From Pseudolabrys sp. (GTDB lineage: Bacteria > Pseudomonadota > Alphaproteobacteria > Rhizobiales > Xanthobacteraceae), in contig JAFIGS010000014.1 in NCBI GenBank assembly GCA_017849615.1, positions 1 to 64,000 of the forward strand: a stretch of 64,000 nt of DNA, read 5' to 3'. Of this stretch, positions 161-46,795 are shown piece by piece. The translations under genes were made by a program, and so were the position numbers. Position 1 is the first letter of the stretch, and every line of letters starts with the position of its first letter. Under the pieces are notes generated by a model. It was given only the letters and a program-made list of their open reading frames with translations, was not told the DNA's origin and made no database searches.

Positions 161-265
161 GTCATTCCGGGGCGGCCTGAAAGCGCGAACCCGGAATCCA
201 GACCAAGCGCAGAGCGTGCCGCTGGATTCCGGGTTCGCTCGCTAAAGCGAGCGCCCCGGAATGAC
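161..265. repeat. nested palindromic repeat, family A copy 1
   Basis: The outer ends form a perfect 14-bp inverted repeat, GTCATTCCGGGGCG and its complement. Inside lies a second perfect 16-bp inverted repeat (186-201 and 222-237, CGAACCCGGAATCCAG and its complement). Three more copies with the same plan occur at 27509, 30788 and 40444. The element sits just after phoB, lies between genes and carries no reading frame of its own. It could fold as a cruciform or RNA double hairpin. Confidence 0.85.
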
Positions 266-13384: not shown

Positions 13385-13591
13385 ATGAGTGATGAAAAGG
13401 CCTCCGACGGCGCAAGCAATGCGGCAATGCGCGCAAGTCAAACGGACGGCACGCGCGGCGTTTCACTTCACGACAACCGCATCGATAGCCGCGCGCTGTT
13501 TGCCGGCGCCCGCGAAATCACCATCGCACATGGCGACGAGACTTACCGGCTGCGGCTGACCGCACAGAACAAACTCATCCTGACGAAGTAA
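13385..13591 (+). CDS. hemP: hemin uptake protein HemP
   Basis: A 68-aa protein of the HemP/HmuP family. The conserved C-terminal half is present: IDSRALFAGAREITIAHGDETYRLRLTAQNKLILTK (given here as one family motif region, residues about 33-68), with the family's RLT..NKLIL ending. In Bradyrhizobium HmuP acts as a co-activator of the heme uptake operon. The frame opens with TTG at 13361, but ATG 13385 is preferred. It leads the rightward operon hemP-hmuTUV and starts 16 bp before hmuT. Confidence 0.88.
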   Translation: MSDEKASDGASNAAMRASQTDGTRGVSLHDNRIDSRALFAGAREITIAHGDETYRLRLTAQNKLILTK

Positions 13592-13607
13592 GGCTGCGAG
13601 AAAGCCG

Positions 13608-14534
13608 ATGCACTGTCACTTCATCACGACACGGCTCGGGCTGGCCGCCATCCTCGCCGCCGCCGTCATCGCCTCGCCGGCGCGGGCCGCCACCGACGTC
13701 AGCCGCATCGTCTCGATCGGCGGCGCGGTGACCGAAATTCTCTATGAGCTCGGCCACGACAGGGAGATCGTCGGCGTCGATACGACCAGCCTCTATCCGG
13801 CGCGGGCGATGAAGGAGAAAGCCAATGTCGGCTATATGCGGCAATTGTCGGCGGAAGGCGTGCTTGGCCTCAATCCGAGCCTGATGATCGCCATTGCCGG
13901 CGCCGGCCCGAAGGAAACGATGAATGTGTTGGAAGCGGCCAAGGTGCCGCTCATCGTCGTTCCCGACTCCTATAGCGAGCAAGGCATCGTCGAGAAGATC
14001 GCCCTGATCGGCAAATTAGTCGGCGCAACCGAGCGCGCCGCCTGCCTCGCCGCGCAGGTTCACGGCGACATCGCCGCGCTGGACAAGATCCGCACCGGCA
14101 TCAGGACGCCGAAGCGCGTGCTGTTCATGCTGTCCTTCATCAACGGCCGCGTCATGGCCGCGGGACGCGGCACGGCCGCCGACGGCATCATCAGGATGGC
14201 CGGCGCGGTCAATGTGTTCGGCGAGCACGAAGCCTACAAGCAGATCAACGACGAAGCGGTGATCGCGGCGCGTCCCGACATGATCGTCACCATCAGCCGC
14301 GGCGGCCCCGCCGAACTGACCGCCGAGACCGTGTTCGAGCAGCCGGCGCTCGCCGCCACCCCGGCCGCCGCCACCAGGGCCTTCGTCTCGATGGACGGGC
14401 TTTATCTGCTCGGCTTCGGCCCGCGCACGGCCCGCGCCGCGCGCGATCTGGCGCTGACGCTTTATCCCGACCTCAAGGACGCCGCGCCGCTGCCATCCGA
14501 ACAGGCCAACGGCAAGGGCGTGTGCGCCGAATGA
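13608..14534 (+). CDS. hmuT: heme ABC transporter periplasmic binding protein HmuT
   Basis: 308 aa with a signal peptide (about 1-27, ...SPARA) and the helical-backbone binding-protein fold of class III solute-binding proteins. Recognisable parts are RIVSIGGAVTEILYELG at the mature start and RPDMIVTISRGG near the C-terminal lobe. It binds heme in the periplasm and docks on HmuU. The stop overlaps the hmuU start by four bases (ATGA), so the transporter genes are translationally coupled. Confidence 0.93.
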   Translation: MHCHFITTRLGLAAILAAAVIASPARAATDVSRIVSIGGAVTEILYELGHDREIVGVDTTSLYPARAMKEKANVGYMRQLSAEGVLGLNPSLMIAIAGAGPKETMNVLEAAKVPLIVVPDSYSEQGIVEKIALIGKLVGATERAACLAAQVHGDIAALDKIRTGIRTPKRVLFMLSFINGRVMAAGRGTAADGIIRMAGAVNVFGEHEAYKQINDEAVIAARPDMIVTISRGGPAELTAETVFEQPALAATPAAATRAFVSMDGLYLLGFGPRTARAARDLALTLYPDLKDAAPLPSEQANGKGVCAE

Positions 14535-15619
14535 CCGACGTCGCCGTCAGCGGATCGATCGCGGAGGCCGCCGGATCGCGGCTGCGCGGGCTGCTGAAAG
14601 GGCCGCTGCTGTTTCCGATCCTGCTCGGAGCGCTGCTCATCGTCGTGATCGCGGCGACGTCCGTCGGCGGTGCCGGCATTCCGCTTGCGCGCATTCCCGC
14701 CGCGCTCGGCCTTGCCGATCCGGTCGCCATGACCGAGCGCGACCGCCTCGTATTGCTGTCGGTACGGCTGCCGCGCATCGCCATTGCCATCATCATCGGC
14801 GCCTTGCTGGCAGCAAGCGGCGCCATCATGCAGGGCCTGTTTCGCAATCCGCTGGCCGATCCGGCGCTGGTCGGCGTCTCCAGCGGCGGCGCGCTGGCTG
14901 CGGCGACCACGATCGTCATCGGCGACCGCATGACGGGGCACACGACGCCCCTGCCCTTCGCCGTGCTGCCGATCGCCGCCTTCGGCGGCTCGCTTATCAC
15001 CACAGCGATCCTGCAACGGCTGGCGAGCCGCGGCCGCACCACATCGATTGCCATTTTCCTGCTGGCCGGCCTCGCCATTGCCGCGCTCGCCGGCGCCGGC
15101 ATCGGCCTTCTGGTCTTTATCGCCGATGACCGCGCCCTGCGCGACATCACCTTCTGGATGCTCGGCTCGCTGGGCGGCGCAACCTGGGAGAAAGTATCGC
15201 TGATCGCGCCGTTCCTGCTTGCCATGTTCGCCGCCGTGCCCTTCCTCGGCCGCGGCCTCGATCTTCTGGTGCTCGGCGAGTCCGAAGCCTTCCACATGGG
15301 CATCGCTGTCGAACGCTTGAAGCGCATCTGCATCGTGCTGATCGCGGCGATGACCGGCGCGGCCGTGGCTTTCGCCGGCGTTGTCGGCTTCGTCGGCATC
15401 GTCGTGCCGCATCTTCTGCGTCTCGTCATCGGCCCCGGTCACCGCAAATTGCTGCCGGCCTCGGCCATTCTCGGCGCGATCCTGCTGCTCGGCGCCGACA
15501 CCGCGGCGCGCACCATCGCCGCGCCCGCCGAAGTGCCGATCGGCGTACTCACGGCGCTGGTCGGCGCGCCGTTCTTCCTCGTACTGCTGCTGCGCCAGCG
15601 CGGACTGGCCGGGCTATGA
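14531..15619 (+). CDS. hmuU: heme ABC transporter permease HmuU
   Basis: FecCD/BtuC-family permease of 362 aa with about ten membrane helices. Family landmarks are RLPRIAIAIIIGALLAASGAIMQGLFRNPLADP (residues about 80-110) and GFVGIVVPHLLR. ATG 14531 is chosen over an earlier GTG because it overlaps the hmuT stop as ATGA. It forms the inner-membrane heme channel with HmuV as motor. The stop again overlaps the next start. Confidence 0.93.
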   Translation: MTDVAVSGSIAEAAGSRLRGLLKGPLLFPILLGALLIVVIAATSVGGAGIPLARIPAALGLADPVAMTERDRLVLLSVRLPRIAIAIIIGALLAASGAIMQGLFRNPLADPALVGVSSGGALAAATTIVIGDRMTGHTTPLPFAVLPIAAFGGSLITTAILQRLASRGRTTSIAIFLLAGLAIAALAGAGIGLLVFIADDRALRDITFWMLGSLGGATWEKVSLIAPFLLAMFAAVPFLGRGLDLLVLGESEAFHMGIAVERLKRICIVLIAAMTGAAVAFAGVVGFVGIVVPHLLRLVIGPGHRKLLPASAILGAILLLGADTAARTIAAPAEVPIGVLTALVGAPFFLVLLLRQRGLAGL

Positions 15620-16413
15620 GCGTGCTCGACGTTCAAAACCTCTCGGTGAAGATCGGCGCCAAGCGCCTGCTCGACGGCGTTTCTTTCTCCGTCGCGCAAG
15701 GCGAGACCGTCGCCGTGATCGGGCCGAACGGCGCCGGTAAATCGACCCTGCTGCGCGCGCTGTCCGGCGAAATCGCGCCGAGCGACGGCGCCGTCCTGCT
15801 GGGCGGCCGCGCGCCGCAGGCCTGGCAACCGCGCGAACTGGCGCTGCGCCGCGCCGTGCTGTCGCAGCACGTTGCCGTGACGTTTCCCTTCACCGTGCTC
15901 GAAATCGTGCGCATGGGCGCCGGCGATCGCCGCGGCAAATCCATCGACGCGATGGCGGAGGCCGCGCTCGCCGCCGTGGACCTCGCCGGCTTTCACAGCC
16001 GCATTATCGGCACCTTGTCGGGCGGCGAACAGCAGCGCGTGCATTTTGCCCGCGTGATGGTGCAGCTTGCCTGCGGCGAGGAAGCGCACGGACCCGGCAT
16101 TCTCCTGCTCGACGAGCCGACGGCGAGCCTCGACCTGCGACATCAGCTCGATCTCGTCGCGGTGGCGCAACAATGCGCCGCCCGCGGCACCACGGTGATC
16201 GCCATCGTCCATGATCTCAACCTCGCCGCGCTGATGGCCGAACGCGTCATCGTGCTCGCAAACGGCCGCCTCGCCGCGGACGGCCCGCCCGCCGTGACGA
16301 TCAATGACGCCACGCTCAGTGACGTGTTCGGGGTGTCATCCGCCGTCGGGCTCACGCCGCAGGCAGGCGCGCCCTTCGTGCTGCCGCACCGCGCAGAGCG
16401 GCTGCGCGCCTGA
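15616..16413 (+). CDS. hmuV: heme ABC transporter ATP-binding protein HmuV
   Basis: ABC ATPase of 265 aa, the motor of HmuTUV. Walker A is GPNGAGKST (36-44), the signature LSGGE at 133-137 and Walker B at 161-166 with the catalytic Glu, followed by a switch His in AIVHDLN. The ATG overlaps the hmuU stop (ATGA). The gene ends 3 bp from the convergent lysR stop, with no room for a separate terminator. Confidence 0.94.
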   Translation: MSVLDVQNLSVKIGAKRLLDGVSFSVAQGETVAVIGPNGAGKSTLLRALSGEIAPSDGAVLLGGRAPQAWQPRELALRRAVLSQHVAVTFPFTVLEIVRMGAGDRRGKSIDAMAEAALAAVDLAGFHSRIIGTLSGGEQQRVHFARVMVQLACGEEAHGPGILLLDEPTASLDLRHQLDLVAVAQQCAARGTTVIAIVHDLNLAALMAERVIVLANGRLAADGPPAVTINDATLSDVFGVSSAVGLTPQAGAPFVLPHRAERLRA

Positions 16414-16416
16414 GCG

Positions 16417-17349
16417 TCAACGCGATTTGCCGGCGCGCTCCTTGCGGGCCTGCTTCACCGCGTCCGGCACGTTGCGCCGCATCAGATCGAGCAGATACTC
16501 GGCGGCCGGTGTCAGCGGCAGACCGGCGCGGCGGATGGTAACGATCGACGGCGCGCGCAGACTCTCGCGGATCGGGATGCGCTCGAGCTGGTCGCCGACC
16601 CACGGCGATTGAATCCACTGGATCGGCACCATCGCCAGCAGATCCGACGCGGCGAGCGACGACATCAAGGTGAGCGCCGATTGGCTGCGGAGCGCGATCT
16701 TCGGCGGCGGCACCTCGAAGCGGCTGAAGAGCTCGCTGAACTCTTCCTCCGCCTTGAAGGTGACCGACGTTGTCGCCCATTCGGCGTCGACAAGCTGCGA
16801 CAGCGAACGCGCGCCGCCGAGCGGATGACCCTTGCGGCCGAGCACGATACGGACATTCTCGAACAGCAATTCCTGCACGAGATCGCCGGGCGGCGCCTGC
16901 ACCGGCTCGGGACCGACATAGAAATCCATGCTGCCGTCGCGCAGCGCATTCTCCAGGGTCGTGTACCAGCCCTCGATGAGATGGAGTTGCACATTGGGAT
17001 AGCGCGCTCGAAACAGCGACAGCGCCTTTGGCAGCAACGCCGTCAGCGCCACCATCGACAGGCCGGCGACGACTTCGCCGCGCGTGCCCCCATGCAGCTG
17101 CTCGACCTCCTCGCGGGCGCGGCGCACTTCGCTCAGCACGGCATTGGCGCGGCGCACGAAGGCGGCGCCCATCGGCGTCAGCACCATGCCGCGCGCGCGC
17201 CGCTCGAACAAAGGCGCGCCGAGCTCGCGCTCGAGATCGCGCACGCTGCGCGTCAGCGCCGGCTGGGCGAGATCGAGATGGCGGGCGGCGGCGCGCAAAC
17301 TGCCGCGCTCGGCCACCGCCACGATGTCGCGCAACTGATTCAGCTTCAT
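16417..17349 (-). CDS. LysR-family transcriptional regulator
   Basis: 310 aa from ATG 17349 (MKLNQLRDIV). The open frame runs much further upstream, but this start gives a classical LysR N-terminus with the winged helix-turn-helix at about 5-63 (ERGSLRAAARHLDLAQPALTRSV). The effector-binding domain follows (about 90-295). It is transcribed away from the FAD hydroxylase gene across a 208-bp region with two GATACC/GGTATC inverted repeats. It therefore probably controls the hydroxylase-TRAP genes in response to an aromatic acid. Confidence 0.9.
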   Translation of the reverse strand: MKLNQLRDIVAVAERGSLRAAARHLDLAQPALTRSVRDLERELGAPLFERRARGMVLTPMGAAFVRRANAVLSEVRRAREEVEQLHGGTRGEVVAGLSMVALTALLPKALSLFRARYPNVQLHLIEGWYTTLENALRDGSMDFYVGPEPVQAPPGDLVQELLFENVRIVLGRKGHPLGGARSLSQLVDAEWATTSVTFKAEEEFSELFSRFEVPPPKIALRSQSALTLMSSLAASDLLAMVPIQWIQSPWVGDQLERIPIRESLRAPSIVTIRRAGLPLTPAAEYLLDLMRRNVPDAVKQARKERAGKSR

Positions 17350-30787: not shown

Positions 30788-30890
30788 GTCATTCCGGGGC
30801 GCGCTGCAAGCGCGAACCCGGAATCTAGCCACAAATTCCGAGCCCGTTTCTGGATTCCGGGTCCGCACCTACGGTGCGTCCCGGAATGAC
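30788..30890. repeat. nested palindromic repeat, family A copy 3
   Basis: Ends GTCATTCCGGG and CCCGGAATGAC are inverted. The inner arms CGAACCCGGAATCTAG and CTGGATTCCGGGTCCG are diverged at two or three places. It occupies the hisD-DUF2948 gap, within an otherwise conserved gene block. Confidence 0.8.
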
Positions 30891-40443: not shown

Positions 40444-40553
40444 GTCATTCCGGGGCAGCGCGCAGCGCTGAACCCGGAATCCGGATCGTCGCTCAGGCCT
40501 TGCTATCAGTCTGGATTCCGGGTTCGCTTGCCATGCAAGCGCCCCGGAATGAC
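40444..40553. repeat. nested palindromic repeat, family A copy 4
   Basis: Outer ends GTCATTCCGGGGC and GCCCCGGAATGAC are inverted. The inner AACCCGGAATCC / CTGGATTCCGGGTT pair matches the other copies, with a slightly longer middle. It sits between the C-methyltransferase and NUDIX genes and supplies false upstream start codons for the latter. Confidence 0.85.
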
Positions 40554-40563
40554 GGAGATCAGC

Positions 40564-41124
40564 ATGGGCGAATATCCCAAGATCAAATCGCGCCGCGAGC
40601 TCGATATCTCGCCCTGGATGAAAGTGATCGAGCGCGAGGTCGAGTTTCGCGCCGGCGCCAAGCCCGAGCTGTATCACGCCATCGGCCAGCAGGATTACAT
40701 CGCCATCGTCGCGCTGACGCCGGACGGCCGCATCCCGATCGTTCAACAGTACCGCCCGGCGGTCGAGCGCAAGACCTGGGAATTGCCCGCCGGCATGACC
40801 GAGGCGGGCGAGGATCCCGCCAAGAGCTGCGAGCGCGAGCTGTTCGAGGAGACGGGCTATCCGGCTAAGGCGGTGCATGCCCTCGGCTCGTTCTCGCCGT
40901 GCACGGCCCGGCTGTCGAACAAGATCCATTCGTTCTTCGTCGAGACGGCCCCGCGGCCGCCCGGCGCGGGGATCGAGGCCGCCATCGAACTCAACCTGGT
41001 CAGCCCGGCGGAGCTCGGCGCCATGATCTACACGGGCGAATTCTCGCTCCAGCTCCACATCGGCGCGCTGATGCTGGCCGGCATGCGAGGCTTCCTGGAT
41101 TTGTCCTCTTTCCGCTCGGCCTGA
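40564..41124 (+). CDS. NUDIX hydrolase (ADP-ribose pyrophosphatase-like)
   Basis: 186 aa from ATG 40564 (MGEYPKIK), with GGAGA seven bases upstream. Earlier in-frame ATGs fall inside the palindromic repeat. The Nudix box GMTEAGE...RELFEETGY is complete. The segment ELPAGMTEAGE resembles the ADP-ribose/ADP-sugar branch. It hydrolyses a nucleoside-diphosphate-linked compound with Mg2+; substrate not fixed. Confidence 0.85.
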   Translation: MGEYPKIKSRRELDISPWMKVIEREVEFRAGAKPELYHAIGQQDYIAIVALTPDGRIPIVQQYRPAVERKTWELPAGMTEAGEDPAKSCERELFEETGYPAKAVHALGSFSPCTARLSNKIHSFFVETAPRPPGAGIEAAIELNLVSPAELGAMIYTGEFSLQLHIGALMLAGMRGFLDLSSFRSA

Positions 41125-41143
41125 CCATCCAAAACCGGCGCCT

Positions 41144-41157
41144 TTGACCTCGGTCAA
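41144..41157 (+). promoter_or_regulatory. FNR/FixK-like box upstream of hemA
   Basis: TTGACCTCGGTCAA is a perfect palindrome of the form TTGAC-N4-GTCAA, fitting the FNR/FixK/CRP-family consensus TTGAY-N4-RTCAA. It is centred 103 bp before the hemA ATG. An activator at -41.5 would place transcription start near 41192. Oxygen control of hemA through such boxes is known in Rhodobacter and Bradyrhizobium. Confidence 0.65.
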
Positions 41158-41253
41158 TACCGCCATGCTGGATTTGGACGAATCTTGGCTCGACAACTGG
41201 GCTGGAACCCCTCTAAAAAGGGCCGAGCTCTGGGGCGAGAGAGTAGAAACCTG

Positions 41254-42483
41254 ATGGATTACAACGCCTTCTTCGTGTCCGCCCTGGATCAGTTGCGCCA
41301 CGAACGCCGCTACCGCGTCTTCGCCGACCTCGAGCGCATCGCCGGCCGCTTTCCCTATGCCTACTGGCACGCCCCGCAGGGCAGGCGCGAAGTCGTGATC
41401 TGGTGCTCGAACGACTACCTCGGCATGGCCCAGCATCCGCAGGTCATCGGCGCCATGGTGGACGTGGCAGCGCGCATGGGCACCGGCGCCGGCGGCACCC
41501 GCAATATCGCCGGCACCAACCATCCGCTGGTCGAGCTGGAGCGCGAGCTCGCCGACCTGCATGGCAAGGAAGCGGCCCTCGTTTTCACGTCCGGCTACGT
41601 CTCGAATCAGACCGGCATTCCGACCATCGCCAAGCTGCTGCCGAACTGCCTGATCCTGTCGGACGCGCTGAACCACAATTCGATGATCGAGGGCGTGCGC
41701 CAGTCTGGCTGCGACAAGGTGATCTGGCGCCACAACGACCTCGGCCATCTCGAGGAACTGCTCAAGGCCGCCGATCCTGACCGGCCGAAGATCATCCTGT
41801 TCGAGAGCCTGTATTCCATGGACGGCGACGTCGCGCCGCTGCACGCGATCTGCGATCTCGCCGCCAGGTATAACGCCATGACCTACGTCGATGAGGTGCA
41901 TGCCGTGGGCATGTACGGGCCGCGCGGTGGCGGCGTCACCGAGCGCGACAAAGCGGCGGACCGCGTCGACGTCATCGAAGGCACACTGGCCAAGGCGTTC
42001 GGCTGCCTCGGCGGTTACATCACCGGCTCGGCGGCGCTGATCGACGCCGTGCGCTCCTATGCGCCAGGCTTCATCTTCACCACCGCGCTGCCGCCGGCGA
42101 TCTGCGCCGCGGCCACCGCCGCGATCCGTCACCTCAAGACGTCGCAGTGGGAGCGCGAGCGCCATCAGGATCGCGCCGCGCGCGTCAAGGCGGTGCTCAA
42201 CGCCGCCGGCCTGCCGGTGATGCCGTCGGATACGCACATCGTCCCGGTGCTGGTCGCCGATCCGGAGAAGGTCAAGATCGCGAGCGACATGCTGCTTGAG
42301 GATCACGGCATTTATATCCAGCCGATCAACTATCCGACCGTGCCGCGCGGCCTGGAGCGCCTGCGCATCACGCCGTCGCCCTATCACGACGACGTCCTGA
42401 TCGACCGGCTCGCCGAGGCCCTGGTGGACGTCTGGGAACGGCTGCAACTGCCGAAAAACCGCCCGCAGCTCGCGGCCGAATAG
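41254..42483 (+). CDS. hemA: 5-aminolevulinate synthase HemA
   Basis: 409-aa PLP enzyme making 5-aminolevulinate from glycine and succinyl-CoA, the first step of tetrapyrrole synthesis in Alphaproteobacteria. The PLP lysine is K247 in GTLAKAFG, with D213 and H216 in [12 protein letters not shown] 41254 gives the normal N-terminus MDYNAFF. The last 73 bp recur almost exactly at 43410-43482, so this 3' end may have been supplied by an inserted element. The encoded protein is unchanged, as all four differences are synonymous. Confidence 0.97.
42411..42483 (+). repeat. direct repeat, left copy (hemA 3' end in use)
   Basis: 73 bp ending with the hemA stop. It matches 43410-43482 at 69 of 73 positions, with 42430-42479 (50 bp) identical. 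The four differences all fall in third codon positions and keep the amino acids (GCC/GCG, GTG/GTC, GAC/GAT, GAA/GAG). Homology ends exactly at the stop codon. Confidence 0.95.
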
Positions 42484-42500
42484 CTACCGCGCAGATTAGC

Positions 42501-43310
42501 CTAGAGTGTTTCGCTCGGTCGCACCCATGGTTCGACGCTTGTGGGCCATTCCGGCGGCACCGCATCGTGAAATACCATTCCACAATCAACTTCCAATGAG
42601 CTTGACTGGAATTCCGGCCAAGCTTGCTTAAACGCCCAGACCTCCAAGAATTCTCTGACAATATTCGGGACCTCTCCCATATCCATCGTCAATTGAATGC
42701 CAAAATATGGATGGGCAGCGTCTAGCGCGGCTTTTCCAGGAATTGAGCAAGTGAGGATAACCGGCCGCCCATCCGCCTCGAGCAAGCTCAGTGCTTCATC
42801 GGAAACAACATGCTGCAGAACGCGCTGATCAAATTCGGACCCGTACAGCAAATAATGATTAAAGCCTGACGAAAGCCCATTCCTCGACAGCGTCAAATGA
42901 ACCTGTCCTTCGCGAGCGCCCATTCTCTCTCCGGGTCCAAGCTCGTCAATCGCCGCTTTTAGCTTCGCCTCCATATCAGGCCAATCTGCTCGCGCCTTCA
43001 ATACCCTCTCGATCCTCACAAGACGGTCACTCGCCTGCAGCGGCAACAGACCTCTTCGTTCAATAGAATCCAGTTCCTCTTCGTTCACCCTGGTCCCATG
43101 AAAGCCTGCAATTCTGTTCGCAGACAACCATGCAATAGTGGCGGCTATCACGCGGGGGCGATCGGCAAGTCCGAATAAGATTTTCAGCGAATCTTCGACA
43201 TATCTTGGCTTCGCCGCTTCAAGTAACTTAGGTGCATTCTTTGGCAAAACGTCAGATAACGTCGCAGCGAGGCTCGGACACCACTCCTGGGCCTTATCAA
43301 AAACAATCAT
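42501..43310 (-). CDS. uncharacterised protein with FHGTR motif, in hemA insertion
   Basis: 269 aa, ATG 43310; no family is recognised. The N-terminal 65 residues look helical. Then GFHGTRVNEEELDSIERRGL (69-88) is followed by a charged helical linker and GQVHLTLSRNGLSSGFNHYL with YGSEF. The HGT...I...GL spacing is reminiscent of the first motif of ADP-ribosyltransferase (H-Y-E) folds, and Tyr and Glu residues follow, but this is only a resemblance. Base composition is lower in GC than the neighbours, a sign of transfer. The gene overlaps the stop of a truncated upstream ORF by four bases, so it was once the second gene of an operon. Confidence 0.72.
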   Translation of the reverse strand: MIVFDKAQEWCPSLAATLSDVLPKNAPKLLEAAKPRYVEDSLKILFGLADRPRVIAATIAWLSANRIAGFHGTRVNEEELDSIERRGLLPLQASDRLVRIERVLKARADWPDMEAKLKAAIDELGPGERMGAREGQVHLTLSRNGLSSGFNHYLLYGSEFDQRVLQHVVSDEALSLLEADGRPVILTCSIPGKAALDAAHPYFGIQLTMDMGEVPNIVREFLEVWAFKQAWPEFQSSSLEVDCGMVFHDAVPPEWPTSVEPWVRPSETL

Positions 43311-43409
43311 GCTCCACTGACCCTTCGGCCATCAATCGTAAAGTTGCACCGCTCGTCCGAGCACACTACCTGCAACGGCCCCAGCTTCAAGCCACAAGAC
43401 TTCGCTATC
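43307..43409 (-). pseudogene. 3' fragment of an upstream operon gene, cut by the hemA repeat
   Basis: Reading leftward from the junction with the hemA copy, a frame ends ...CGLKLGPLQVVCSDERC then NFTIDGRRVSGA, and stops with TGA (43309-43307). That stop overlaps the ATG of the 269-aa gene as ATGA, the usual sign of an operon partner. No start codon or body is present to the right because the native hemA tail begins there. About 30 codons remain; the family is unknown. Confidence 0.45.
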
Positions 43410-43482
43410 CGCCGAGGCGCTGGTCGATGTCTGGGAACGGCTGCAACTGCCGAAAAACCGCCCGCAGCTCGCGGCCGAGTAG
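43410..43482 (+). repeat. direct repeat, right copy (orphan hemA 3' end)
   Basis: A second 73-bp hemA terminus including the stop codon, not connected to a hemA body. It lies 3 bp from the abrB stop and is therefore probably the original chromosomal hemA end, or the element's copy brought in with it. It differs synonymously from the left copy at four positions. Confidence 0.95.
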
Positions 43483-43485
43483 CCG

Positions 43486-44622
43486 CTAGTCGTCGATCGA
43501 ATCCGGCGAGCGCGGCACCGCCGGGCCCTTGTCGCCGCCGCGGGCCACCAGCCGCACCACGAACGGCATCGCGCCCATCACGAAAAAGATGCGCACCAGA
43601 TGGTGCGTGCCGACATAGACGAGGTCGAAACCGAGCGCGAGCGCCAGCAGCAGCATGGCGTCGGCCGCGCCGGGCGCGTAGGCCACCATGACCTCGGCCA
43701 CCGGGATATCGAGAAGCAGCAGCACCAGCCCGGCGCAACCGGCGGTGACCGCCATCGTCACCGCGAAAGCGCCGAAGGCCGCGCCGGTGAATTGCAGCAG
43801 CAGCCGCACCGGCGTATCGGCGAAACGGGCGCCGCTCACCGCGCCGAACGCGATCATCGCCGCGTAGGATATCCACCACGGCATCACGACGCGCAACGTG
43901 TCGGTGCCATGCAGCACCGCAGACGTCATCATGGCGCCGAACAAGAGCCCGCCTGGCAGGCGCAGGCGATGCGCGACGATTGCCGCGAGCGACGAGACGA
44001 CGACAAGAATGACGAGCTCGCCGGTCTGCGACGGATCGAACGATGCGCGCGCCGGCGCCGCCACATGCTCGACGAGTCCCAGCCCCGTGAACAAGGCCGG
44101 CAGGCCGATGGCGAGGATCATGACGCGCACGGTCTGCACGATGGCGATGCCCCGGACGTCGGACTTGAACTCGACGGCCAGCGCCATCACCTGCGACAGC
44201 CCGCCGGGCACCGAGCCGAGATAGGCCGCCAGGCCGTCCCAGCCATGGACCGCGCGCAGATAGATGGTGCCGGAGGCGCTGATAACGACGGTGGCCGCCA
44301 GCATCACCGCGATGCTCACCGGATAGCTGGCCATGCCGCGCAAGGTTTCGGGCGTGACCATCGCGCCGAGCGAAATGCCGATCAGCACAATGAGCACGCG
44401 CATCATCGTCGTCGGCACGCGCATCGGCCGGCCGGCGAGCGCGGCAATGGCGACCACCAGGATCGAGCCGGACAGATAGCCCGCCGGCATGCCGAGCAGG
44501 CCGAAGGTCAGACCACCGATGGCGGCGAAGACCATTGTTTCCGCGATGTTGCGGAACAGGATCATGCGGTCGGGTTTCGGAGCAGCGGACAAAGGCGAGA
44601 CTTCCAGGACACGACGCGACAC
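43486..44622 (-). CDS. AbrB-family membrane protein (putative ammonia monooxygenase / transporter)
   Basis: 378 aa with about ten membrane helices in two similar halves, the AbrB duplication family. The repeated motif appears as GLPAGYLSGS-like GMPAGYLSGSILV near 45-58 and LPGGLLFGAMM in the second half. Old records call it ammonia monooxygenase without evidence; a transport role is more plausible. The GTG at 44622 is taken as start; ATG 44565 (MILFRN) is an alternative. It converges on the hemA locus. Confidence 0.82.
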   Translation of the reverse strand: MSRRVLEVSPLSAAPKPDRMILFRNIAETMVFAAIGGLTFGLLGMPAGYLSGSILVVAIAALAGRPMRVPTTMMRVLIVLIGISLGAMVTPETLRGMASYPVSIAVMLAATVVISASGTIYLRAVHGWDGLAAYLGSVPGGLSQVMALAVEFKSDVRGIAIVQTVRVMILAIGLPALFTGLGLVEHVAAPARASFDPSQTGELVILVVVSSLAAIVAHRLRLPGGLLFGAMMTSAVLHGTDTLRVVMPWWISYAAMIAFGAVSGARFADTPVRLLLQFTGAAFGAFAVTMAVTAGCAGLVLLLLDIPVAEVMVAYAPGAADAMLLLALALGFDLVYVGTHHLVRIFFVMGAMPFVVRLVARGGDKGPAVPRSPDSIDD

Positions 44623-44674
44623 GCGCCGTTCCGGGGCCCTCCATGCGCCAGTCCGGCGGTGCGGTCAAACCGCT

Positions 44675-46795
44675 TCAGTACAGAAGATCCTGCGTCAATG
44701 TCGACAAATGCTGCACGGCGCCGAGCGCGGCCTTCAGACTGGCGCGCTGTTCGGTGTTCAGCGACCTGACCTCGACCTTGTTGCCGGGCGGCTGCCCCGC
44801 ATGCATGTCAGCCAGTTGCTGCGCGAGGATCAGATCGAGGAACGTGGCCTGGGCGCGGCCGAGCGCCTCGAGGTCGCCAACGCTGCGCCCGAGCGCAATG
44901 GCGGCCGCAAGTCGCGCCGGCGTCGAGCGCTCGACGAAGTGGTAGCGAACCGCCAGCACGCGGGCGAGCGTGACGATACCGAACAGACCCGCACGCTTGA
45001 GATCGATGCGACCGCCTTCGGTGCGGATGCCGCCGAGGATCGTCAGGCCCGGCGTCACCTCGCCGCCAGCCTCGGCGAGCAGCTTGGCGAACACGACATT
45101 GCCCTCCGCCGCGTCGAAACCATCGCGCCAGATCCGATTGGCCAGACGCGCATCGCCATGCACGGCGAGCAGATCGAAGAAGATATCGACGGCGAGCAGG
45201 TCGGCCGGCGACGATCGTGTCAGCCACGAACCGAGCCGCGCGCGCCACGTCGCCAGCGAGCCGCGCCAGGCGTCGTTCCTGGCCATGACGCCGCCGGTGC
45301 AATACGGCACGCCGACCTCGTGCAGGATGTCGGCGACGATAATGGCGTAGTCCTTGAACCAGAGATCCTCGGCGCCGCCCGGTTCGCCCTCGGCAAACAC
45401 CAGTGCATTGTCCTGATCCATGGCCAGCAGGCTTTCGCCGCGCCCGGCCGAACCGAGCACGCATAGCGCATAGGGGCACGGCGGCTTGCCTTTGCCCTCG
45501 GCCAACATGCGCCGCTCCGCGAGCACGCCGGCCCGCCGCGTCAGCGCGCCGAGCTCGCGCGAAATCACCGCGGCGATGTCGCGGGCGCAGACGCCCTCGG
45601 CCAGCAGCCCCTCCGCCGCGCGCGGCAGTCGGGACCAGGCGGCGCCGAGATCTTGCACGTCTTCGGCGTGGTCGAGGAGGTCGCCGAGGATGGTGAGTTC
45701 CTGCGCGCGCAGCTTCAGCAAATCGCGCGAACTGACGATGCCGCAAACCTCGCCGTCCTCGTTCTCGACGACGAGGTGGCGCAGTCTGTGCCGGCTCATA
45801 CGCCCGAGCGCGCGATAGACGAAGGCCGCGCGCGGCAGGGCGACCACCGGCCGGCTGGCGATATCGCCGACCGGCCGCGCGAGCGCATCGACGCCACGCT
45901 CGCCGATCGCGCGCATCACGTCGCGCTCGGTGACAATGGCGGCGTCCGCCACGCGCAGCGGCCCCGCCAGATCCGCCGGCGCGACCAGCAGCGACGAGAT
46001 CTTGTCGCGCACCATGACATCGAGCGCCTCGGACAACGGCGCCGTCGCGGCAATGCTCCGCACATCGGCCGTCATGACATCCGCGACGCGATGCCGGTAC
46101 GGATAGGTGTCGATGCGGTCGAGCGAGCCGCGCACGCGGCCGCGCGGCTGCGCCACGGCCTGTTCCCAGCCGGCGCGATGCTGATCGTCGAGCACCTCGG
46201 ACAGCGCGAGGCAGGCCTTCTCGGCTTCCGCCAGCGTGCGGATATTGCCCTCGCGCAGCTTCGGCAGCAGCGCGAGGAAGATGCGCGCGGTGAGAATGGC
46301 GTCGCCAACGGCCGAATGTCGGTCGGACACGGTGACGCCCAGCCAACTGGCGAGATGTTCAAGCGTGTAGCCGCCGAGGCGCGGCTCGACCACCTGCGCC
46401 AGCAGCTGCGTGTCGAGCGTGCGCGGCGCGCGCCATGTCAAACCCGCGCGTTCGCATTCGCGCTTGAGCACGGCAAGATCGAAGCCGAGCGTGTGCCCGA
46501 TCCAGACCGCTTCGCCGAGCGGCTGCGAAGACGCCGGCCAGACCGCCGCGAACCGGGGCGCGTCGGCCACCGCCGCGTCGTCGATGCGATGGATTTTCGT
46601 GGCCGCCGGCGGGATCGGCTCGCCGGGATTGATGAGCCGGCGCAGAGCCGCGGCCTCGTCGAGCTTGCCGCTCTTGAGCGGCACCGTTCCAATGTCGATC
46701 ACCCGCGCCTTGGCCGGATCGAGCCCGGTGGTCTCGGTGTCCACGACCACGGCGTTGAGCGAAATCAGTGGCGTTGCGCTGCCGCTTATCGCCAT
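44675..46795 (-). CDS. DnaQ-like exonuclease - CBS pair - DUF294 nucleotidyltransferase fusion
   Basis: 706 aa from ATG 46795, with GGGGGAG eight bases upstream; the earlier open frame is rejected. Residues 14-175 form a DEDDh exonuclease with D19/E21 (VVVDTETTG), D106 and H160/D165 (HSAVGD). Two CBS domains occupy about 237-360. A DUF294 nucleotidyltransferase follows, with GSAGRGE at 448-454 and D460/D462, then DUF294_C to the end. CBS-DUF294 proteins and separate exonucleases occur next to acetate symporter and CrbS-like genes in other bacteria; here all are in one chain. The catalytic residues look intact in both enzymes. Confidence 0.88.
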   Translation of the reverse strand: MAISGSATPLISLNAVVVDTETTGLDPAKARVIDIGTVPLKSGKLDEAAALRRLINPGEPIPPAATKIHRIDDAAVADAPRFAAVWPASSQPLGEAVWIGHTLGFDLAVLKRECERAGLTWRAPRTLDTQLLAQVVEPRLGGYTLEHLASWLGVTVSDRHSAVGDAILTARIFLALLPKLREGNIRTLAEAEKACLALSEVLDDQHRAGWEQAVAQPRGRVRGSLDRIDTYPYRHRVADVMTADVRSIAATAPLSEALDVMVRDKISSLLVAPADLAGPLRVADAAIVTERDVMRAIGERGVDALARPVGDIASRPVVALPRAAFVYRALGRMSRHRLRHLVVENEDGEVCGIVSSRDLLKLRAQELTILGDLLDHAEDVQDLGAAWSRLPRAAEGLLAEGVCARDIAAVISRELGALTRRAGVLAERRMLAEGKGKPPCPYALCVLGSAGRGESLLAMDQDNALVFAEGEPGGAEDLWFKDYAIIVADILHEVGVPYCTGGVMARNDAWRGSLATWRARLGSWLTRSSPADLLAVDIFFDLLAVHGDARLANRIWRDGFDAAEGNVVFAKLLAEAGGEVTPGLTILGGIRTEGGRIDLKRAGLFGIVTLARVLAVRYHFVERSTPARLAAAIALGRSVGDLEALGRAQATFLDLILAQQLADMHAGQPPGNKVEVRSLNTEQRASLKAALGAVQHLSTLTQDLLY

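What the first reader, a model, noticed from the sequence alone, without database searches (positions are those of the whole stretch)
42411..43482. 999-bp insertion that duplicates the 3' end of hemA
Two 73-bp copies of the end of hemA (42411-42483 and 43410-43482) lie exactly 999 bp apart. They agree at 69 of 73 positions, with a 50-bp identical core, and all four differences are synonymous. Homology stops sharply at the stop codon. Between them lies DNA that looks less GC-rich and holds an unknown gene. The right copy abuts the convergent abrB gene as an uninterrupted hemA would. This is what integration into a protein-coding 3' end leaves behind: the reading frame is restored by a slightly different copy carried in by the element. 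hemA is not among the commonly cited integration sites, and no integrase remains.
Basis: partly seen in the sequence, partly recalled or inferred. Interest (0 to 1): 0.85.

Follow-up and report, generated by a model that had tools for sequence, protein, structure and literature searches.

The report
Foreign gene behind a duplicated hemA tail
A bacterium carries about 1 kb of foreign DNA inserted at the end of its haem-synthesis gene hemA, with what is probably the gene's old last 73 bases left stranded on the far side; the same genome shows a second such scar at another gene, which points to a general recombination accident more than to a special landing site in hemA.

Summary
In detail: 42411-42483 and 43410-43482 agree at 69 of 73 bases, 999 bp apart, the only such repeat in the window. 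The 926 bp between has unusually low GC and holds one unnamed gene, found in 1 of 43 genomes of the genus. In 24 of 29 relatives hemA abuts abrB without an insert, so this is an insertion. The right copy is probably the displaced native tail, the left an imported one; the evidence is modest. A hemA attachment site is not supported: no integrase in the insert, one tblastn hit in 61 fetched regions, 4.3 kb from hemA. Two other hemA inserts strand tails of other lengths (124 bp; about 18 bp, weak). The same genome has a like case at a lyase gene: 155-bp tail, 1,078-bp low-GC insert, no second tail in 11 relatives within the 1.5 kb held. I favour one-sided homologous recombination: incoming DNA anchored by a related hemA end, its other end joined illegitimately inside the old tail. 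A decayed site-specific element (CIME-like) is the main rival. Cargo function unknown. New member of a known kind.

The parts
41254..42483 (+). hemA, 5-aminolevulinate synthase, intact 409 aa, ending in the left (probably imported) tail
   Evidence: TIGR01821 E 5.2e-202, 671 bits against a cut-off of 338.55
42411..42483 (+). left copy of the hemA 3' end; in-frame end of the working gene
   Evidence: 69 of 73 identical to the right copy; private at 42426, 42429 and 42480, beyond sites shared with the right copy, where the two nearest relatives agree
42484..43409 (.). inserted DNA, 926 bp, 52.9% GC
   Evidence: no insert in 24 of 29 relatives, gene X in 1 of 43 genomes; lower GC than all 631 sampled windows
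42501..43310 (-). cargo gene X, 269 aa, unnamed family; relatives on plasmids, in a few Alphaproteobacteria and in one IMG/VR contig
   Evidence: no Pfam, NCBIfam or PADLOC match, one PHROG at E 0.34 in one of four members; relatives
43410..43482 (+). right copy of the hemA 3' end; probably the displaced native tail, in a 46-aa open frame
   Evidence: right allele in 20, 24 and 16 of 27 relatives at the first three differing sites, 11 of 27 at the fourth; next to abrB as in relatives
43486..44622 (-). AbrB-family membrane protein gene, native convergent neighbour of hemA
   Evidence: PF05145 E 5.1e-66, TIGR03082 E 5.2e-55

Best explanation
A one-sided recombination scar. DNA from a close relative, carrying the end of its hemA followed by foreign DNA with gene X, entered the cell. 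Its hemA part recombined with the resident hemA upstream of base 42411 (inferred). Its other end was joined without homology into the resident hemA 73 bp before the end (inferred from the joint at 43409/43410, where the match extends 0 bp to the left). The incoming hemA end replaced the resident one, so the enzyme stays whole; the resident's last 73 bp was left stranded next to abrB. Shown: insertion, empty sites, two tails, no recombinase found in the insert, a second locus of like build in the same genome. Inferred: direction of replacement, RecA, route of entry, donor.
For: Empty sites in 24 of 29 relatives. At sites where the two nearest relatives agree, only the left tail is private at 3 and only the right at 0 (hemA), 4 and 1 (lyase locus). 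The two tails are closer to each other (69/73) than either is to any of 27 relatives (best 66/73), as an anchor for homologous recombination should be. A like build recurs in the same genome at an ADSL-family lyase gene: 155-bp tail copies at 94%, insert 1,078 bp at 52.7% GC, homology ending 6-9 bp before the two stop codons, a convergent MFS gene beyond, and no second tail in the about 1.5 kb held downstream of the gene in 11 relatives. Other inserts at the hemA end strand a 124-bp tail (G501), an 18-bp remnant (G010) or no detectable tail (G036, G032, G020), as joints at variable places would. The mechanism exists: passages of PMC5361080 describe it, name Pseudomonas, Streptococcus and Acinetobacter, and propose it for displaced downstream genes; start of the abstract of PMC3240628 in a listing.
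Against: No donor with hemA directly followed by gene X was found. Entry routes such as competence were not examined. Passages of PMC5361080 call the process rare, several orders of magnitude below ordinary recombination. A donor tract should extend upstream of the repeat, yet the 98 bp there show no private base against a 5-of-6 majority (4 of 15 hemA windows have none) and one, 42408, against the two nearest relatives. Over 27 relatives the fourth differing site favours the left allele, 16 to 11. In G501 the relatives match the left copy at least as often as the right in four of five. The G010 remnant rests on 15 of 18 bases (1 of 200 shuffles).
Confidence: 0.48

Rival explanations
1. A decayed site-specific element (CIME-like): an integrative element once inserted in the 3' end of hemA, bringing a replacement tail; integrase and most of the element were later deleted, leaving gene X between attL and attR.
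For: Kept reading frame, probably displaced native tail, sharp end at the stop codon, low GC. Relatives of gene X sit on two conjugative plasmids and, in two of the contexts read, beside a serine resolvase. A passage of PMC5704250 defines such remnants; passages of PMC4482086 show islands in a protein gene that restore it with an element-borne end. In G501 the first 46 bp of the repeat are identical and the rest diverges, as an att core with a carried tail would.
Against: No integrase hit better than E 0.02 in four inserts; one hit in 61 regions, 4.3 kb from hemA (only 14 query integrases, by tblastn). Joints differ among the hemA cases, while dusA islands share a 21-bp site. Two remnants of about 1 kb with both ends kept would be needed in one genome. 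No hemA tail beyond chance in phage records.
Confidence: 0.34
2. Single RecA crossover of a small circular DNA that carried gene X and a hemA fragment (Campbell-type).
For: Gives the same two-tail product; gene X relatives occur on plasmids.
Against: With a crossover inside the 50-bp identical core, the upstream left alleles would have to be the resident's own and the downstream one the circle's. No record with both a hemA tail and gene X was seen, but 101 of the 141 records were not listed.
Confidence: 0.08
3. The tail was duplicated in place together with the insertion and the copies diverged afterwards.
For: Both copies share four bases that differ from a 5-of-6 majority of relatives, so they are closely related.
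Against: Changes fall mainly on the working copy: 3 to 0 at hemA, 4 to 1 at the lyase; a freed copy should change at least as fast. The numbers are small.
Confidence: 0.07
4. Assembly error.
For: No reads available.
Against: The tails differ at four places, the site lies inside a 214-kb contig of an assembly given as 99.99% complete and 0.2% contaminated, and an unrelated locus shows a like build.
Confidence: 0.03

Closest known systems
Homology-facilitated illegitimate recombination and the orphan gene ends it is thought to leave (Vibrio effector-immunity arrays, Rhs loci)
   Same: One homologous flank, one non-homologous joint, old downstream sequence kept and displaced (passages of PMC5361080).
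   Different: There the targets are variable toxin loci; here a housekeeping gene whose replaced end encodes the same residues. Donor and entry route unknown.
CIME, a decayed ICE or IME that keeps only attL and attR (defined in a passage of PMC5704250)
   Same: Short insert between two copies of a gene end, no recombination or transfer gene found.
   Different: No functional relative found at this site; joints vary; a second case at another gene in the same genome.
dusA-specific genomic islands (passages of PMC4482086)
   Same: Protein-coding target restored by an element-borne copy; imperfect direct repeats.
   Different: 5' end of the gene, 21-bp semiconserved site, integrase common to all 94 compared, 4.8-185 kb.
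Small variable segments of bacterial genomes (passage of PMC2884548)
   Same: Short strain-specific segments; 10-18% there are flanked by direct repeats.
   Different: Most repeats there are under 30 bp and are discussed as a route to deletion.

Membership tests
Homology-facilitated illegitimate recombination product | one flank continuous with homologous resident DNA | tested here: met
   hemA is intact and runs without a break into the left tail
Homology-facilitated illegitimate recombination product | other joint without homology | tested here: inconclusive
   0 bp of match between the two copies to the left of 42411/43410; homology between the lost donor and the resident at this joint cannot be seen without the donor
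Homology-facilitated illegitimate recombination product | donor in which the anchor gene is linked to the foreign DNA | tested here: inconclusive
   gene X in 1 of 43 genomes of the genus, 2 of 385 of the class, 4 of 398 of the phylum (two of them weak and partial), each count including the window's own; no donor found
Homology-facilitated illegitimate recombination product | depends on RecA | not testable with these tools
   needs experiment
CIME / site-specific integrative element | direct repeats formed by the target gene end | tested here: met
CIME / site-specific integrative element | integrase in the insert | tested here: not met
   one gene, no family match; no tblastn hit better than E 0.02. 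A CIME by definition has lost it, so this does not exclude a CIME
CIME / site-specific integrative element | same att position used by related elements | tested here: not met
   stranded tails of 73, 124 and about 18 bp in three hemA cases; the three inserts are not shown to be related to one another
CIME / site-specific integrative element | larger functional elements at the site | tested here: not met
   one integrase hit in 61 regions, 4.3 kb away; a strong DNA-level second tail in 1 of 50 hemA ends, one of the 50 having no downstream sequence. Regions were short and several end at contig ends
CIME / site-specific integrative element | excision | not testable with these tools
   needs experiment
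Transposon | terminal inverted repeats | tested here: inconclusive
   none of the 25 longest of 34 inverted pairs in 41000-45000 joins the two ends of the insert; the other nine were not shown

The most novel reading that the evidence does not exclude
A class of roughly 1-kb integrase-less cassettes that travel with a copy of the 3' end of whichever gene they sit behind, so that each insertion heals its target and leaves a stranded native tail; the two in this genome, and perhaps the inserts behind hemA in two further genomes, would be examples.
Probability: 0.1. Interest if true: 0.75.

Novelty: new member of a known kind. Interest (0 to 1): 0.36.

Why it matters
Stranded gene ends are readable scars of how single foreign genes may enter chromosomes without an integrase. 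Two in about 1.65 Mb of one genome suggest that they can be counted genome by genome, which would allow one-sided recombination in nature to be measured. It also warns against calling every duplicated gene end an integrase attachment site.

Tried and rejected
Larger islands with integrases at the hemA end: not found in the regions fetched. The single hit, in L150, lies 4.3 kb from hemA and was not followed up. The integrase queries were 14 kept by a motif filter out of 25 frames taken from 30 loci.

G033 as a further case: two contigs begin with the same hemA end, about 140 bp, and part exactly at the stop codon, but hemA itself was not found in that genome at the threshold used; a strain mixture or a full second hemA explains it as well, so it was dropped. 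G032 was dropped because its contigs merely overlap. G1155 is a contig end.

TGTTTCA triplet in the lyase insert as an integrase arm site: seen in 1 of 43 genomes of the genus, but an integrase lay within 1.5 kb in only 1 of 71 IMG/VR loci with a similar pattern, against 1.2% of random positions (3 of the 71 hold any integrase by this test). No support.

C28 repeat (83 bp, insert GC 57.5%): not a gene tail by the frames seen.

Strand folding of the tails: no unusual structure. Structure of gene X: mean pLDDT 34.4 and 43.6, unusable; no fold search was run. A profile hit to PDB 6nyr (E 1.7e-5) has no stretch that passes on its own and was not used.

First allele counts failed through my own regular expressions; one search is the corrected one: 27 of 29 loci used, L013 and L032 without a usable tail.

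Full report
What is there. The two tails are as described: 42411-42483 and 43410-43482, 69 of 73 identical, 999 bp apart. They are the only repeat of this kind in the window. The four differences are all synonymous. The insert of 926 bp has lower GC than any of 631 sampled windows (52.9% against 65.6% for the window). It encodes one 269-aa protein on the minus strand. The protein matches no Pfam, NCBIfam or PADLOC model, and among four family members one has a PHROG match at E 0.34.

It is an insertion. The genus is probably Pseudolabrys: contig lengths of three searched genomes of the genus (G002, G024, G030) equal those of records named Pseudolabrys, while other genomes of the same genus correspond to records with other submitter names, such as Rhodopseudomonas, Rhizobium or unnamed Proteobacteria. 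Of 37 relatives with a hemA match 29 had their hemA locus fetched; in 24 of these the hemA and convergent abrB alignments end 10-139 bp apart. The five others are G036 and G032 (about 1.9 kb of other genes), G010 (2.4 kb), G020 (1.3 kb) and G028 (no abrB in the 14 kb fetched). Gene X is in 1 of 43 genomes of the genus, the window's own.

Which copy is native. Among 27 of 29 relatives with a usable tail the right allele is commoner at the first three sites (20 against 4, 24 against 3, 16 against 10) but not at the fourth (11 against 16). The nearest relatives give all four right alleles in G001, G012 and G024, three in G007, G002 and G013. Using only sites where G001 and G007 agree, the left tail alone is private at three sites and the right alone at none. 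So the right copy is probably the old end and the left the imported one; the evidence is modest. The two copies are closer to each other than to any of the 27 (best 66 of 73), so the imported end came from something closer than the relatives compared.

The arrangement is not peculiar to hemA. About 1.65 Mb of the 4.4-Mb genome was scanned for direct repeats (864 kb, a further 782 kb). One other gene-tail case appeared, in contig C27: 155 bp at the end of an ADSL-family lyase gene (PF00206 and ADSL_C) recur 1,242 bp downstream at 94% identity. The 1,078 bp between has 52.7% GC and no frame over 112 aa, with no Pfam match for the two frames tried. Homology stops 6-9 bp before the two stop codons, and beyond the second copy lies a convergent MFS gene. 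Of 12 relatives searched 11 have this gene (the lower-identity second matches, 49-53%, were left aside), and none of the 11 shows a second tail in the about 1.5 kb held downstream. Polarity there is 4 left to 1 right. The remaining repeats were judged by eye to be dispersed families or shared protein motifs; only one, an 83-bp repeat in C28, was looked at more closely, and it is not a gene tail by the frames seen.

Other insertions behind hemA. A 31-residue tail query over 391 genomes of the family gave hits in 349; the row list was cut at about E 2e-6. Twenty stretches with second or short-frame matches were fetched and most proved to be contig ends, frame breaks or whole second genes; the one clear orphan tail near a full hemA, besides the window's, is in G501. 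Three short-frame rows (G015, G035, G659) were not fetched. In G501 124 bp at 94% recur 5,364 bp downstream; the insert carries an IS-type transposase and a MarR-type regulator among other genes. The relatives compared do not say which copy is native there. In G010 a 2.4-kb insert with two haem-oxygenase-like genes (one above, one below Pfam's cut-off) ends in 18 bp resembling a hemA end, 15 of 18 bases, reached by 1 of 200 shuffles, 63 bp before the end of abrB. G036, G032 and G020 show no such remnant. A DNA-level search of 50 fetched hemA ends found a strong second tail only in G501; seven other regions gave 14-19-nt matches at E 0.002-0.008 that I take as chance, and one had no downstream sequence; this test does not find the G010 remnant. 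Over the order, 129 of 140 genomes matched a tail consensus; in the cut list only the window's genome has a confirmed orphan; G1155 is a contig end, and short-frame rows in G806, G1144 and G1198 were not fetched.

Is there an integrase? None was found in the insert. Fourteen integrases from five genomes gave one tblastn hit in 61 fetched regions (55 of them at hemA, five around relatives of gene X), 4.3 kb from hemA in L150. Phage records hold no hemA tail beyond chance (best E 4). Plasmids hold matches in 141 records; of the 40 listed, those with a gene named under the match have hemA, the rest show none or are unannotated. IMG/VR has no exact match to a genus-level pattern.

Mechanism. With the anchor crossover anywhere upstream of 42411 and the far joint at 43409/43410, one-sided homologous plus illegitimate joining gives this product in one step. 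It replaces the gene end, keeps the protein, strands the old tail, makes homology stop near the stop codon, and lets the joint fall anywhere. This fits two genes in one genome and three tail lengths at hemA. A site-specific element fits the anatomy of one locus equally well and fits the G501 pattern of an identical first 46 bp. I therefore give it about a third. Literature: passages of PMC5361080, PMC2884548, PMC5704250 and PMC4482086; passages of PMC3784515 on duplications made by transformation and the outline with abstract of PMC10214605 were seen but carry no weight here; the rest are search listings. Searches for hemA or 5-aminolevulinate synthase as an integration site (0 papers; 28, 20 listed; 1; 16, 10 listed) showed nothing relevant by title and start of abstract; none was opened for that question.

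Gene X. Relatives: two conjugative Roseobacteraceae plasmids (37-38%) and a partial match in a Thauera plasmid, G190 (44%, followed by a serine resolvase), G1024, and an IMG/VR contig where an X relative is followed by a second, distantly related protein and then a serine resolvase. Single-sequence scans of genome contigs and IMG/VR found none, nor did phage records. Conserved H-G-T/C-R, H-Y and G-S/A-E motifs recall ADP-ribosyltransferase-like folds; that label is recalled, not tested, and the structure models were too poor to use.

Noticed in passing
G000 contig C27 (L172) 13464-17349: Second insertion of like build: lyase gene end duplicated (155 bp, 94%) around 1,078 bp of low-GC DNA before a convergent MFS gene.
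   Followed up: yes
L172 14970-14999: Three TGTTTCA repeats in 30 bp inside that insert, found in 1 of 43 genomes of the genus; role unknown.
   Followed up: partly
L165 5980-8246: IMG/VR contig with an X-family gene, a second distant member directly behind it, and a convergent serine resolvase; G190 (L037 6674-8138) has one X gene and a resolvase.
   Followed up: partly
L170 8674-13673: G1024: X relative a few kilobases from two genes that look by eye like an AbiEi/AbiEii pair (label recalled, not searched).
   Followed up: no
window 161-201, 30788-30828, 40444-40484: Dispersed repeat GTCATTCCGGGG...CCCGGAATCCAG; similar repeats appear in other stretches of this genome.
   Followed up: no
L087 end and L088 start (G033): Two contigs share about 140 bp of the hemA end and split exactly at the stop codon: a second hemA or a strain mixture.
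   Followed up: partly
L038 2971-5205 (G010): Insert behind hemA with a small gene and two haem-oxygenase-like (Haem_oxygenas_2/TENA) genes.
   Followed up: partly
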